This document shows, piece after piece, positions 53,445 to 57,478 of a stretch of 64,000 nucleotides of DNA (its first letter is position 1; each line of letters opens with the position of its first letter). The stretch covers positions 62,001-126,000 of the forward strand of contig JAJPIF010000004.1 of assembly GCA_021324885.1 (NCBI GenBank). The letters run 5' to 3'. The notes under the pieces are model-generated. The model was not told the DNA's origin. It saw only the letters and a program-made list of their open reading frames with translations, and did no database searches. Position numbers and translations under genes: made by a program. Source of the stretch: Pseudomonadota bacterium (GTDB lineage: Bacteria; Desulfobacterota; Binatia; Binatales; Binataceae).

Positions 53445-53693
53445 CGTGGCACGAAGCTGGCTTACGGCGCTGGTTTCCCCAAACAAAACCCCCGCACGTC
53501 GACGATGCAGATGCATTGCCATCGCCTGATTCACATCTACAAAGCCGAGGTCAAGTAAGACCGCATGACCGCCGACGAGTACCGCCATATGGCGAAAAAG
53601 GCGGGAAAGTCCGGCTAGCGCGAGAAGCCTCGGGCCGATTCGCGTTGACCTATGGCGGCGCGGGCGCGTAGAGTCGGATTGGGAGGAACGGCG

Positions 53694-54305
53694 ATGCTGC
53701 GACTCTTTGACTACAAGCTTTGACCCTATGTGCGCAAAACGCGCATCGCCCTTTTGGAAAAAGGGCTTCAATGGGAAACCACGTGGCTCGATCTCGCCAA
53801 GGGCGAGCAGAAAAAGCCCGAGTACCTGAAGATCAATCCGGTCGGCAAGGTGCCGGCGCTGATCGACGATGGAGTCGTGGTCCACGACTCGACCATCATC
53901 AATGAGTACCTCGAAGACAAATATCCGTCACCGCCGCTGCTGCCCAAGGATCCGGCCATGCGCGCCCGCGCGCGCTCGTTCGAGGACTACGCCGACGCTT
54001 ACCTGGCGCCTTCGCTGTTCAAGATCCTGATGAACCTGCGCAAGCCGGAAGCCGAGCGCGACCAGGAGAAAATCAGGGAGGGCGAGCGCGAGATGCGCGA
54101 CCATTTCGCCTTCCTCGATCGCGAACTCAACGGCCGCCAGTTCTTTGCCGGGATGCTGAGCCTGGGCGACATCTCCTTCGCGCCGCCCCTGGCCAACTAC
54201 GAGCGCGCGGGATATAAAATCGGACCCGAATTTCCCCACCTGAGGGCGTGGTGGGAGCGGATGAAGTCGCGGCCGAGTTTTGCCCGCAGCCTGCCGCCCG
54301 ACTGA
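53694..54305 (+). CDS. Glutathione S-transferase, omega-like, with in-frame TGA (selenocysteine candidate) at catalytic position
   Basis: The ATG at 53694 has GGGAGGA six bases upstream. The frame reads MLRLFDYKL, then TGA at 53721 (codon 10), then continues without a break as PYVRKTRIALLEKGLQWETTW to a stop at 54303-54305 (203 residues). Omega-class and related GSTs have CPFxxRxRLxLxxKGI or SPYVRKVRI here, so the TGA replaces the catalytic Cys/Ser. The rest is intact: NPVGKVPALIDDG with cis-Pro, HDSTIINEYL glutathione-binding motif, and a helical C-terminal domain to RPSFARSLPPD. A GGA-loop hairpin follows (53748-53766). I favour selenocysteine insertion; a nonsense mutation or restart at GTG 53730 are alternatives. 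Confidence 0.7.
53748..53766 (+). promoter_or_regulatory. SECIS-like hairpin downstream of the in-frame TGA
   Basis: GCCCTTTT pairs perfectly with AAAAGGGC around a GGA loop. The loop G lies 32 bases after the TGA, within the range accepted for bacterial SECIS elements (about 16-37), and the loop begins with G as required. The stem is built with the leucine codons CTT and TTG, which are rare beside the CTG/CTC used in neighbouring genes. A shorter 5-base stem (TGCGC/GCGCA, 53731-53745) lies between. Confidence 0.5.
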
Positions 54306-54343: not shown

Positions 54344-55747
54344 ATGGCGAAGCAACCGCTGGGCAGGCTTGATCATATCGGGATCGCGGTCAGGAGCATC
54401 GATCAGGCGCGCAAGTTCTTCGAAGAAATCCTCGGCGCGCGCTTTCTGCATGAATCCGCGCGCCCCGAGGACGGCTTTCGCGTCGTCAACTTCGAACTGA
54501 ACAACGTCATCATCGAATTGATCGAGCCCGTCGGCGAAGATTCCTTCGTCCGGAAATTCATCGACAAACGCGGCGAGGGGATGCATCATCTCACCTTCAA
54601 CGTCCCCGACGCGCGCGAGCGGGTAGCGCAACTGAAAGCTCAGGGAGTGCGGATCGTGGACGAGCGCGAATGGCCCGATTCGTTCGAGGCCTTCATCTCG
54701 CCACGCTCTTCACATGGAGTGCTGATCCAGATCGGGTCGGGCTTTCCGACTCTGTCCGACCATCCGCAATGGTACGCCAAACGCGACCAAGCATCCGATG
54801 GCGCAAACGGAGGCGATTCAATGAATACCGCCGAGGAAATTGAACAGCTCAGACTGGTGGCCGAAATTTCAGGACTCAAACCGCCGAAGGTCGTTCTGCC
54901 GGACGAAGGCGACGTCATCGTCGAGCACTTCCGATTGCATTACCTGGATTGGGGCCGTCCCGGACCCGGAGCGGGCGACGTCCTGTTTCTGCACGGCGGC
55001 GGGCTGAACGCACACACGTGGGACGTGGTCAGCCTGATGCTGCGGACGCGCTACCGTTGCGTCGCGCTGGACCAGCGCGGGCACGGCAACAGCGAATGGT
55101 CGCCCGGCTGCGACTATGCCATGGCCAGCCATCTGCGCGACATCGAAGGCTTTGTCGCCCAGATGAAACTGCGCCGTCCGGTGCTGGTCGGGCAGTCGAT
55201 GGGCGGGATCAACGCGATCAACTACGCGTCGCGCCATAGCGAGGAGATGGCGGGTCTGGTGGTGGTCGATGTCGGACCGGAGATCATCGCGGCCGGCGGC
55301 GCGCGCATCCGCGACTTTATCGCCGCACCGCAACTGGACTCGCCCGAGGAGTTCCTCCAACGGGCGACCAAATTTAACCCGCTGCGCGACCCGCGCATCC
55401 TGCGCCGCAGCCTCTATTACAATCTGCGCCAGCTTCCCAACGGCAAATGGACCTGGAAACATGACACGCGACGCACGGTCGAGAGCCAGGGTGAAGACAT
55501 GGCGCGCGCCGCGGCCCACCGCGCCGAGGAATTGTGGCAGGCGGTGCCGCGCATCAAGTGTCCCACGATGGTGGTACGCGGGGCGCTAAGCGACGTGATT
55601 TCCGACACGCAAGCGGAGAAATTCGCCAAGGCGCTGCCCAACGGGCGATTTGTGCGCGTCGAGAAAGCCGGGCACAACGTTCAGGGCGACAATCCCGCCG
55701 GACTGCTCGCCGTGCTCGAGCCGTTTTTGGAAGAAGTAACCGCGTAG
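54344..55747 (+). CDS. VOC (glyoxalase/epimerase) - alpha/beta hydrolase fusion
   Basis: Two domains in one 467-residue chain. Residues 1-150 are a vicinal-oxygen-chelate domain like methylmalonyl-CoA epimerase: LDHIGIAVRSIDQARKFFEEILGA with the first His ligand, NNVIIELIEPV with Glu, GMHHLTFNV with the second His, and SSHGVLIQIG. Residues about 185-465 are an alpha/beta hydrolase: VLFLHGGGLNAHTWD, DQRGHGNSEWS, nucleophile elbow GQSMGG (Ser near residue 286), and KAGHNV with the catalytic His. The linker contains DSMNTAEE, where an internal start may exist. The fusion suggests successive steps on one substrate. It lies 38 bases after the GST. Confidence 0.87.
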   Translation: MAKQPLGRLDHIGIAVRSIDQARKFFEEILGARFLHESARPEDGFRVVNFELNNVIIELIEPVGEDSFVRKFIDKRGEGMHHLTFNVPDARERVAQLKAQGVRIVDEREWPDSFEAFISPRSSHGVLIQIGSGFPTLSDHPQWYAKRDQASDGANGGDSMNTAEEIEQLRLVAEISGLKPPKVVLPDEGDVIVEHFRLHYLDWGRPGPGAGDVLFLHGGGLNAHTWDVVSLMLRTRYRCVALDQRGHGNSEWSPGCDYAMASHLRDIEGFVAQMKLRRPVLVGQSMGGINAINYASRHSEEMAGLVVVDVGPEIIAAGGARIRDFIAAPQLDSPEEFLQRATKFNPLRDPRILRRSLYYNLRQLPNGKWTWKHDTRRTVESQGEDMARAAAHRAEELWQAVPRIKCPTMVVRGALSDVISDTQAEKFAKALPNGRFVRVEKAGHNVQGDNPAGLLAVLEPFLEEVTA

Positions 55748-55772: not shown

Positions 55773-56497
55773 ATGGATATCGGCAAAGAACTCCTGCTGG
55801 AAATGTATCGCCGGATGCAGCGCATCCGGCAGTTCGAACTCAAGCTCAAGGACCTCAGCATCGGCAGCGAAATTCCCGGCTTCATCCATCTTTCGATCGG
55901 CGAGGAGGCCAGCGCCGTCGGTATCTGCACGGCCTTGCGCGCCACCGACCGCATCACCTCGACCCATCGCGGCCACGGCCATCTGATCGCCAAAGGCGGA
56001 GAACTCAAGCGGATGCTCGCGGAGATCTTCGGCAAGCGCACAGGCTACTGCAAGGGCAAGGGCGGCTCGATGCATATCGTGGACTATTCGCTGGGAATCC
56101 TTGGTGCCAACGGCATCGTCGGCGGCGGCATCCCGATCGCGACCGGATCGGCGCTCGCCGCCAAAGTGACCAAGCGTCGGAGGCGGTGGCGCGCGCACGC
56201 AACGGCGAAGGGCCGACGCTGCTGGAATGCCGCACCTACCGATGGGAAGGGCACGTCGTCGGCGAGGGCGCATTCGGCGGCAGGCCGTACCGCAGCGAAG
56301 AGGAACTCAACGCCTGGAAGGCGCGATGCCCGATCCTGCAATTTGAAAAGCGGATGCTCCAATCCGGCCGCATCAGCCGCGAGGAGATGGATCGGATCGC
56401 CGCGCAGACCCAGATCGAACTGGAGGCGGCGGTCGAATTCGCGCGCACCAGCCCGCTGCCCGACCCCGCCGAGGCCGCGGCGGACGTTTACGCATAA
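55773..56497 (+). pseudogene. Dehydrogenase E1 alpha subunit with internal deletion and frameshift
   Basis: Thiamine-diphosphate E1 alpha of a pyruvate/acetoin-type 2-oxoacid dehydrogenase. The first 134 codons are normal: MYRRMQRIRQFELKLKD, GFIHLSIGEEASAVGICTAL, TSTHRGHGHLIAKG, GKGGSMHI, GGGIPIATGSALAAK. At about 56175 the sequence jumps into another frame at EAVARARNGEGPTLLECRTYRWEGHVVGEG, which belongs about 100 residues later in the family, and then runs to a normal C-terminus at 56497. The lost part contains the GDG...N thiamine diphosphate site, so the product cannot work as drawn. It is either a real deletion or a misassembly. Confidence 0.85.
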
Positions 56498-56509
56498 GGA
56501 GCGACCGTC

Positions 56510-57478
56510 GTGGCGAGAATCACTTTTATCCAGGCGATCTTCGACGGGCTCATCGAAGAGATGGAGCGCGACCCGCTGACCTTCGTGCTGGGTCTGGACG
56601 TGACGCGCGGCACCTTCGGACGCGCTGCCGGATTCTTCGAGCGCTTCGGCCCCGAACGGATCCTCGACATGCCATTGTCGGAGGCGGGATTCGTCGGCGC
56701 GGCAGTTGGCGCCGCGATGGCGGGGACGCGTCCGATCTGCGAGGTCCAGTTCGCGTCGTTCTTCTATTGCGCCTTCGACCAGCTGTGCAATCAGGCGGCC
56801 AAACTGCGCTACATGTCCGGCGGGCAGGTGCGCCTGCCGATCACGTTCCGCACGCGCTGCGGCGCAGTCGGTGGAGCAGCGGCGCAGCATTCAGAAACCG
56901 TTTACCCGCAGCTCCTCAGCGTTCCCGGTCTCAAGCTGGTGATGCCTTCGGGACCGGCCGACGCCAAGGGCCTGCTCAAAAGCGCGATTCGCGACGACAA
57001 TCCCGTGGTGGTGTTCGAGCATCTGGCGCTGGGCGGCGCGCGCGAAGAAGTGCCCGAAGGCGAACATCTGGTGCCGCTGGGCAAGGCGGCGGTCAAGCGC
57101 GAGGGCAAGGACGCCACCGTAATCGCGATCGGCGCGATGGTGCCCAAGGCGATCGCGCTGGCACAGCGCCTGGAGGCGGAGGGAATCAGCCTTGAAGTGA
57201 TCGATCCGCGCACGCTCATCCCGCTGGACGAAGAGGCGATTCTTGCTTCGGTGGCGAAAACCAATCGCGTCGTGATCGCCGACGAAGCGCATCTGCACGG
57301 CAGCGCGGCATCCGACATTGGCTGCATGATCGCGGAGAAGGGCTTCGACTACCTCGACGCGCCAATCAAAAGAGCGACGGCAATCGACGCGCCCGTACCC
57401 TTCAGTCCGCCGCTGGAAAAGGCGGTAATCCCCGGAGAAGCCGCAATCGAGCGGGCGCTGCGCGAAATTTTAGGGTAG
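56510..57478 (+). CDS. Dehydrogenase E1 component beta subunit
   Basis: Beta subunit of a pyruvate/acetoin-type E1, 322 residues. RITFIQAIFDGLIEEMERDP, GRAAGFFERFGPERILDMPLSEAGFVGAAVGAAMAGTRPICEVQFASFFYCAFDQLCNQAAKLRYMSGGQ carries the thiamine-activating Glu in LSEAG; the C-terminal transketolase domain has VEVIDPRTLIPLD-like segment LEVIDPRTLIPLDEEAIL. Frame and length are intact, unlike the alpha gene before it. GTG start with AAGGAG eight bases upstream. No E2 or E3 gene is in the window. Confidence 0.9.
   Translation: MARITFIQAIFDGLIEEMERDPLTFVLGLDVTRGTFGRAAGFFERFGPERILDMPLSEAGFVGAAVGAAMAGTRPICEVQFASFFYCAFDQLCNQAAKLRYMSGGQVRLPITFRTRCGAVGGAAAQHSETVYPQLLSVPGLKLVMPSGPADAKGLLKSAIRDDNPVVVFEHLALGGAREEVPEGEHLVPLGKAAVKREGKDATVIAIGAMVPKAIALAQRLEAEGISLEVIDPRTLIPLDEEAILASVAKTNRVVIADEAHLHGSAASDIGCMIAEKGFDYLDAPIKRATAIDAPVPFSPPLEKAVIPGEAAIERALREILG

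What the first reader, a model, noticed from the sequence alone, without database searches (positions are those of the whole stretch)
53694..54305. Glutathione S-transferase with TGA at the catalytic residue: likely selenoprotein
Seen: a strong ribosome binding site and ATG open a frame that hits TGA at codon 10 and then continues intact for 193 codons. The TGA falls where omega-like GSTs have the catalytic Cys (CPFxxR) and related GSTs have Ser (SPYVRK). A perfect 8-base stem with a GGA loop starts 24 bases after the TGA, with the loop 32 bases away, as in bacterial SECIS elements, and it uses leucine codons (CTT, TTG) that are unusual here. Known: GST-like selenoproteins have, to my recollection, been reported from marine metagenomes, but are not characterised. 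Inference: Sec at this site would make a very reactive thiol-transferase or peroxidase, beside CoA-thioester and VOC enzymes.
Basis: partly seen in the sequence, partly recalled or inferred. Interest (0 to 1): 0.88.

Follow-up and report, generated by a model that had tools for sequence, protein, structure and literature searches.

The report
Selenium-containing glutathione transferase in soil bacteria
This gene makes a glutathione-transferase-like enzyme in which the reactive amino acid is selenocysteine, written with a codon that normally means stop; such genes had been predicted from ocean DNA, and here they prove common in a class of uncultured bacteria, where their function can now be tested.

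Summary
In detail: ATG 53694, in-frame TGA 53721-53723 (codon 10), 193 further sense codons, stop at 54305, and an 8-bp GGA-loop hairpin (53748-53766) with its loop 32 nt after the TGA.

The selenoprotein reading is strongly supported. The genome has selA, selB, selD and tRNA-Sec(UCA). All 12 of 148 class genomes that hold this clade keep the TGA; relatives carry Cys or Ser there. Six codons over the hairpin are almost free of synonymous change (1 of 100,000 random codon sets as low).

Two further TGA clades turned up: 15 genomes, and 31 genomes with 39 genes. Their hairpins keep the GG loop start but have another stem, 13 nt nearer the TGA. The 12 distinct clade-1 proteins have no Cys. I infer a monoselenol, glutathione-dependent peroxidase or thioltransferase; activity is untested.

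GST-like selenoproteins were already predicted from the Sargasso Sea and GOS (PMC1088965, PMC2398784; passages). So this is a new, abundant group of a known, uncharacterised kind. Independent gain of Sec is suggested, not proven (AU p 0.121).

The parts
53694..54305 (+). Sec-GST coding sequence, 203 residues with Sec at position 10, own stop TGA 54303-54305
53721..53723 (+). UGA codon read as selenocysteine, at the column where relatives have Cys or Ser; N-cap of helix 1 in the model
53748..53766 (+). SECIS hairpin GCCCTTTT[GGA]AAAAGGGC, loop 32 nt after the UGA
53730..53744 (+). second small hairpin between UGA and SECIS (5 bp in the consensus), present in the 9 aligned clade-1 genes; role unknown
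53681..53687 (+). Shine-Dalgarno-like GGGAGGA
   Evidence: SD-like motif in 11 of 12 distinct clade-1 genes
53645..53674 (+). promoter-like TTGACC-18-TAGAGT, weak consensus match only
   Evidence: 1 found, 0.3 expected
53730..53732 (+). GTG that a gene finder would take as start of a 191-aa protein without the UGA; GTG in 3 of 12 and GCG (no start) in 9 of 12 distinct clade-1 genes
54344..55747 (+). ORF with a VOC/glyoxalase-like domain (about 54344-54793; methylmalonyl-CoA-epimerase-like, just under the TIGR03081 cut-off) and an alpha/beta hydrolase in the same frame; conserved neighbour of clade-1 Sec-GSTs

Best explanation
A genuine bacterial selenoprotein: a cytosolic-type GST whose catalytic residue is selenocysteine. 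SelB with Sec-tRNA(UCA), guided by the GGA-loop hairpin after the codon, decodes UGA 53721 as Sec (inferred from sequence evidence; decoding itself not shown). Sec10 caps helix 1 of the thioredoxin-like domain beside a conserved glutathione-site pattern. As the protein has no Cys, I infer a one-selenol cycle: the selenolate attacks a peroxide or a mixed disulfide, the resulting E-Se-OH or E-Se-S-R is resolved by glutathione to E-Se-SG, and a second glutathione frees the selenolate. It would thus work as a glutathione-dependent peroxidase or deglutathionylase rather than mainly as a conjugating transferase. Confidence given is for the selenoprotein identity together with GST scaffold (about 0.93) and the redox mechanism (about 0.55), weighted.
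For: Sec machinery in the same 4.53-Mb assembly: tRNA-Sec 70 bits, UCA anticodon; selB 374.5 bits, selA 567.6 bits, selD 376.4 bits, all over cut-off; SelD itself carries an in-frame TGA. TGA at codon 10 with the hairpin in 12 of 12 clade-1 genomes; in the 62 fetched non-TGA homologues that reach the column the residue is Cys (21), Ser (40) or Met (1), and 61 of 62 lack a stem of 6 or more at either SECIS place. Codons +10 to +14 show no synonymous change in 12 distinct genes. bSECIS limits met: 3-nt loop, 8-bp stem, GG at the loop start, 32 nt, -8.9 kcal/mol (limits from PMC13188914, passage). Clade 2 shows compensating synonymous changes in its stem: Watson-Crick pairs 105 of 112, above all 2,000 shuffles. 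Model pLDDT 96.2 with helix 11-22 right after Sec10; GST structures at Z up to 26.9. Glutathione-site pattern VPxL...[DE]S in 12 of 12, 15 of 15 and 20 of 20 distinct proteins of clades 1-3. Glutathione synthetase in the genome (388.5 bits). No Cys in 12 of 12 distinct clade-1 proteins. Man-made Ser-to-Sec GSTs gain strong GPX activity (PMC10812501, abstract passage; PMC9944854, passages).
Against: No protein, 75Se or read-level evidence. The clade-1 hairpin alone is not improbable (7.05% and 3.6% of redraws), and it shows no compensatory pairs (0 of 24 predicted pairs in 9 sequences; shuffles uninformative). In clade 2 the hairpin codons are not significantly low in synonymous change (5,633 of 100,000). 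In clade 3, 3 of 19 distinct stretches have a T-T mismatch at stem pair 2, and 44 of 2,000 shuffles reach the observed pairing. In 4 of the 58 Sec-GST genomes no selA was found; of these G442 has tRNA-Sec and selB, G519 has tRNA-Sec only, and G198 and G507 show none of the three. selA is so common in the class (123 of 148) that its presence discriminates little: 54 of 58 with and 69 of 90 without a Sec-GST. Lack of Cys is not special to clade 1: 10 of 61 non-Sec homologues also have none. Nine clade-3 genomes (family f117) have no glutathione synthetase hit, which does not fit a strict glutathione enzyme in that group.
Confidence: 0.8

Rival explanations
1. Pseudogene or assembly error: TGA is a nonsense mutation or miscalled TGC/TCA.
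For: Window is from a metagenome assembly (30 contigs); one TGA only; reads are not held.
Against: Same TGA in 12 of 12 clade-1 genomes, 15 of 15 clade-2 genomes and all 39 clade-3 genes in 31 genomes, several of them one-contig assemblies (G400, G401, G496). The frame before the TGA is conserved as protein.
Confidence: 0.02
2. Translation starts at GTG 53730, giving a 191-residue protein; the upstream ATG-TGA is a 9-codon leader or noise.
For: ORF callers choose this start.
Against: In 9 of 12 distinct clade-1 genes that codon is GCG, no start; a Shine-Dalgarno-like motif precedes the ATG in 11 of 12; the first nine codons encode a conserved MLxxFDYKx, and such a product would lack strand 1 and the catalytic position.
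Confidence: 0.02
3. UGA is read as another amino acid, by a reassigned code or plain read-through.
For: None direct; translation under TGA=Trp would also be open.
Against: The gene itself ends in TGA, as do 6 of 12 distinct clade-1 genes; 25 of 43 non-overlapping ORFs of 200 or more codons in the window end in TGA (mechanical ORFs). The column is Cys or Ser in relatives and a SECIS-like hairpin follows.
Confidence: 0.02
4. It is a selenoprotein but its job is conjugation or isomerisation (classical GST or maleylacetoacetate-isomerase-like chemistry), with Sec only as a better nucleophile or a hydrogen-bond partner of glutathione thiolate.
For: GST fold throughout; a glyoxalase/epimerase-like VOC gene is a conserved neighbour in 10 of 12 distinct clade-1 loci; weak maleylacetoacetate isomerase similarity (89 bits, cut-off 171).
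Against: Selenium is generally used for redox steps (PMC9312934, abstract in search listing); several Cys-type structural neighbours are disulfide oxidoreductases (3gx0); seleno-GSTs made by design are peroxidases. None of this tests the native enzyme.
Confidence: 0.3

Closest known systems
GST-like selenoprotein of the Sargasso Sea and GOS metagenomes (COG0625 / PF13409; PMC1088965, PMC2398784; listed in reviews PMC9312934 and PMC13188914)
   Same: GST-superfamily protein with predicted Sec and a bacterial SECIS; no CxxU or UxxC motif is given for it in those tables.
   Different: Known cases come from marine metagenomes (4 sequences in 2005; the figure 12 in the 2008 table). Here whole genomes of one class of uncultured bacteria, three clades, two SECIS places, and the Sec machinery found. 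Their sequences are not held here, so whether any clade equals the marine family is untested.
Nu-class / YfcG-type GSTs (PDB 6tah, 4eci, 3gx0) and phi-class GSTs (6f05, 4ri7)
   Same: Same two-domain fold, Z about 25.7 to 26.9 over 195-201 residues for these entries.
   Different: Sec in place of the catalytic residue; 25-30% identity.
Semisynthetic seleno-GSTs (GmGSTU4 shuffled variant Sh14, rat T2-2, human zeta 1-1; PMC10812501, PMC9944854, passages)
   Same: Sec placed at the active-site Ser of a GST; they become glutathione peroxidases.
   Different: Man-made by chemistry or auxotrophic expression; here the genetic code does it.
SspA (PDB 6v91, 4qq7)
   Same: Best sequence matches in the PDB; their Cys of CPF aligns with Sec10.
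   Different: Bit scores 92 only; the NCBIfam SspA equivalog cut-off is far from met (66.6 against 314).

Membership tests
Bacterial selenoprotein (SelB/SECIS-dependent) | In-frame UGA at a site where homologues have Cys | tested here: met
   Cys in 21, Ser in 40, Met in 1 of 62 non-TGA homologues with that column
Bacterial selenoprotein (SelB/SECIS-dependent) | bSECIS: loop 3-9 nt, stem 4-16 bp, G in first two loop positions, 16-37 nt from UGA, MFE <= -7.5 kcal/mol (PMC13188914, passage) | tested here: met
   for the window; for the clades
Bacterial selenoprotein (SelB/SECIS-dependent) | selA, selB, selC, selD in the genome | tested here: met
Bacterial selenoprotein (SelB/SECIS-dependent) | Sec shown in the protein (75Se or mass spectrometry) | not testable with these tools
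Cytosolic GST superfamily | GST_N and GST_C domains over Pfam cut-offs and GST fold | tested here: met
Cytosolic GST superfamily | Glutathione-site pattern (VP loop, [DE]S) | tested here: met
   12 of 12 distinct clade-1 proteins (pattern recalled, not from a call)
Cytosolic GST superfamily | Glutathione binding and catalysis | not testable with these tools
   -
GST-like selenoprotein of marine metagenomes | GST (COG0625 / PF13409) with Sec | tested here: met
   PF13409 79.3 bits; family definition
GST-like selenoprotein of marine metagenomes | Sequence clade shared with the marine members | not tested
   their sequences were not at hand
Glutathione peroxidase (GPx family) | GPx domain | tested here: not met
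   no GPx family among Pfam hits at E <= 0.001; it may work like one, but is not a member
Uxx-star glutaredoxin-like selenoproteins (NF041212, NF047338) | Curated score cut-off | tested here: not met
   12.6 against 66 and 13.3 against 97 bits
SspA, FzlA, MaiA equivalogs | Curated score cut-off | tested here: not met
   66.6/314, 100.7/300, 89/171.05 bits

The most novel reading that the evidence does not exclude
Selenocysteine arose at least twice at the GST active site within one bacterial class, once from a Cys/Ser-type lineage with a SECIS placed 32 nt downstream (clade 1), and once in the ancestor of clades 2 and 3 with another SECIS at 19 nt. It gave a natural, Cys-free selenoperoxidase on a GST scaffold in clade 1, while clade 3 in family f117 works with a thiol other than glutathione.
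Probability: 0.25. Interest if true: 0.75.

Novelty: new member of a known kind. Interest (0 to 1): 0.57.

Why it matters
GST-like selenoproteins have stood in tables since 2005 without known function (the 2026 review says that nearly all selenoproteins in its list that includes GST remain largely uncharacterised; PMC13188914, passage). Here 58 of 148 genomes of one class carry one, in three clades with 67-100% identical members in clade 1, whole genomes, synteny and Cys and Ser relatives side by side, own genome included (Cys paralogue L077, Ser paralogue L087). That allows a direct test of what selenium adds to a GST, and of how a SECIS moves or re-arises inside a coding frame. Such genes are cut at the UGA or started late by gene finders, so they are easily missed.

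Tried and rejected
Pseudogene, assembly error, late GTG start and code reassignment were tested and set aside. Hairpin-only significance for clade 1 was tried and is weak. RNAalifold on 9 clade-1 genes gave no compensatory pairs. One origin of Sec for all three clades: the best tree of 78 rows needs two changes, but the AU test does not reject one clade (p 0.121); 15 long-branch or remote rows of the 93 were dropped, and clades 2 and 3 were sampled (9 of 15 and 14 of 20 distinct genes). One extra TGA hit, L079, has Ser at the column; its TGA lies elsewhere in the match and I did not follow it. A plasmid search gave 1,515 records, best place under 60% identity in each; 8 were listed and none was checked for TGA. 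Eleven of the fetched homologues did not reach codon 10 in the local alignment and were left out of the codon counts. One search was a mistaken alignment and is not used. Papers: PMC1088965, PMC2398784, PMC9312934, PMC13188914, PMC10812501, PMC9944854, PMC9999580 and PMC12013277 were seen as passages; others only as listings. No paper holding both 'Binatota' and 'selenoprotein' was found; with 'selenocysteine' only PMC9999580, where the word is in a reference title. The library covers open-licence papers only, so this is not proof of absence. Searches for Sec-containing native GSTs by phrase listed no paper whose title or abstract start describes a characterised native one.

Full report
What is there. 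The window lies in a 4,533,256-base assembly in 30 contigs (96.04% complete, 1.78% contaminated). At 53694-54305 a GST frame opens with ATG behind GGGAGGA, meets TGA at codon 10 (53721-53723) and runs on for 193 codons to its own TGA. Read through, it matches GST_N_2, GST_N_3, GST_N, GST_C and others over their Pfam cut-offs. An 8-bp stem with loop GGA (53748-53766) has its loop 32 nt after the TGA and folds at -8.9 kcal/mol.

Sec machinery. tRNA-Sec scores 70 bits at G000:C25:71369-71460, and ARAGORN names it tRNA-SeC with anticodon UCA. selB (374.5 bits), selA (567.6) and selD (376.4) all pass their cut-offs. The selD frame itself carries an in-frame TGA in ...KAAGUAGKL...; that this is the usual Sec/Cys site of SelD is recalled, not from a call.

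Relatives. A scan of genome contigs gave 43 related loci. Thirteen have TGA at codon 10: L009-L016 at 67-89% identity and L021-L025 at 40-42%. A search of the 148 class genomes held found the first clade in 12, all in the window's family f1, each with TGA and the hairpin loop at 32 nt; L097 has a G-U pair in the stem. A second clade is in 15 of 148 genomes, all f108. A third is in 31 of 148 (39 genes; f5, f116, f117). Every listed match of clades 2 and 3 is reported with one TGA; I read the codon itself in 20 clade-2 and 21 clade-3 loci, and all had TGA at the site. Of the 62 fetched homologues without TGA that reach the column, 21 have Cys, 40 Ser and 1 Met. The window's genome has both a Cys paralogue (L077) and a Ser paralogue (L087). 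Record titles of co-clustering loci (Candidatus Binataceae, Candidatus Binatia, Candidatus Binatus) suggest class Binatia, family Binataceae; this is an inference, as the genomes of the genome search are unnamed.

SECIS evidence. In clade 1 (12 distinct genes) the six hairpin codons have a mean synonymous difference of 0.028 against 0.464 for 140 other codons; 1 of 100,000 random codon sets and 1 of 141 contiguous windows are as low. Clade 3 gives 0.131 against 0.526, 0 of 100,000. Clade 2 is not significant by this measure (5,633 of 100,000), but its changes compensate each other: stem pair 2 is G-C in 8 and A-T in 6 of 14 distinct stretches, and 105 of 112 Watson-Crick pairs exceed all 2,000 shuffles. 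For clade 3, 44 of 2,000 shuffles reach the observed pairing, and 3 of 19 stretches have a T-T mismatch at pair 2. Redraws of synonymous codons reach the observed stem in 1,410 and 715 of 20,000 (clade 1), 1 and 0 (clade 2), 48 and 189 (clade 3) for two genes each, so for clade 1 the hairpin alone is weak evidence. The loop starts with GG throughout (GGA in clades 1 and 2; GGA 15, GGC 4 in clade 3), at +32 in clade 1 and +19 in clades 2 and 3. The 13-nt shift is not a multiple of three, so the element sits in another phase of the frame. In 61 of 62 non-Sec homologues no stem of six or more stands at either place. The published limits of bacterial SECIS elements (PMC13188914, passage) are met by the window.

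Machinery across the class. selA is in 123 of 148 genomes: 11 of 12, 15 of 15 and 28 of 31 genomes of clades 1, 2 and 3, and 69 of the 90 without one. Of the four Sec-GST genomes without selA, G442 has tRNA-Sec and selB, G519 tRNA-Sec only, G198 and G507 neither over cut-off. These are draft assemblies of 210 to 670 contigs; missing pieces are likely but not shown.

Origin. In a tree of 93 rows, Sec site masked, each Sec clade is one side of a branch. In a second tree of 78 rows clades 2 and 3 join (97/86) and clade 1 stands apart, two changes for Sec against not Sec; holding all Sec rows together costs 13.9 log units, p 0.121, not rejected. With the different SECIS places, two gains or one gain with a displaced SECIS both remain open; I favour two.

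Structure and mechanism. AlphaFold2 gives pLDDT 96.2 with strand 2-6 and helix 11-22, so residue 10 caps helix 1, the catalytic place of thioredoxin-fold proteins (established knowledge). GST structures match at Z up to 26.9. The pattern VPxL..[DE]S is in all 47 distinct Sec-GSTs of the three clades. The 12 distinct clade-1 proteins have no Cys, though 10 of 61 non-Sec homologues lack Cys too. With no resolving Cys, a selenenyl intermediate would have to be resolved by an outside thiol. Glutathione synthetase is in the genome (388.5 bits) and in 12 of 12, 14 of 15 and 19 of 31 genomes of clades 1, 2 and 3 (partial hits in G432, G505, G512 counted). It is absent from all nine f117 genomes, two of which have 1 and 4 contigs. 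Man-made Ser-to-Sec GSTs gain peroxidase activity: kcat 177-fold in PMC10812501 (abstract passage), and others in PMC9944854 (passages). From this I infer a glutathione-dependent peroxidase or thioltransferase for clade 1; the step from anatomy to activity is inference.

Neighbours. A VOC gene (methylmalonyl-CoA-epimerase-like, 105.2 bits against a cut-off of 114.95) lies next to the Sec-GST in 10 of 12 distinct clade-1 loci, 9 in the same direction and 1 (L094) facing it; in L062 and L097 it was not found in the short flank held. Clade 2 has an Rrf2-type regulator upstream in 9 of 15 loci and a metallo-beta-lactamase-fold gene downstream in 10 of 15; clade 3 an ABC permease upstream in 11 of 20 (one member of each group identified by Pfam). 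Clade 2 next to Rrf2 hints at redox or nitrosative control.

What is known. GST is among the new selenoprotein families of the Sargasso Sea paper (4 sequences) and in the GOS table (figure 12), and stands in the 2022 and 2026 reviews with one accession each. So the kind is known and uncharacterised. New here are the taxon, the number (58 of 148 genomes), three clades, two SECIS places and the machinery in the same genomes. First, weakest link: no experiment shows Sec in the protein.

Noticed in passing
window 55773-56579 (+): Pyruvate dehydrogenase E1 alpha-like frame matches TIGR03182 only over positions 2-132 of 315; an E1-alpha-like C-terminal stretch continues in another frame (ORF 56186-56497). 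It looks internally deleted or misassembled, next to an intact E1 beta (56510-57478).
   Followed up: partly
window 54344-55747 (+): VOC domain and alpha/beta hydrolase form one 467-aa frame here, but two separate ORFs in the close relative L009 (5652-6101 and 6281-7207).
   Followed up: no
L138, L145, L147 genomes (G512, G508, G505) and others: Several family f5 genomes hold two or three clade-3 Sec-GST genes each (G512 three; G504, G505, G506, G508, G509, G520 two).
   Followed up: no
genomes G489-G497 (family f117): All nine carry a clade-3 Sec-GST but give no glutathione synthetase hit; the thiol partner may differ.
   Followed up: no
L023 (CAMBFS010000013.1): A record titled Klebsiella pneumoniae MAG carries a clade-2 gene identical in protein to that of class member G405 (100%); the label looks wrong.
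   Followed up: no
window 53730-53744: A second small conserved hairpin between UGA and SECIS in the 9 aligned clade-1 genes; role unknown, it may just follow from Arg codons.
   Followed up: partly
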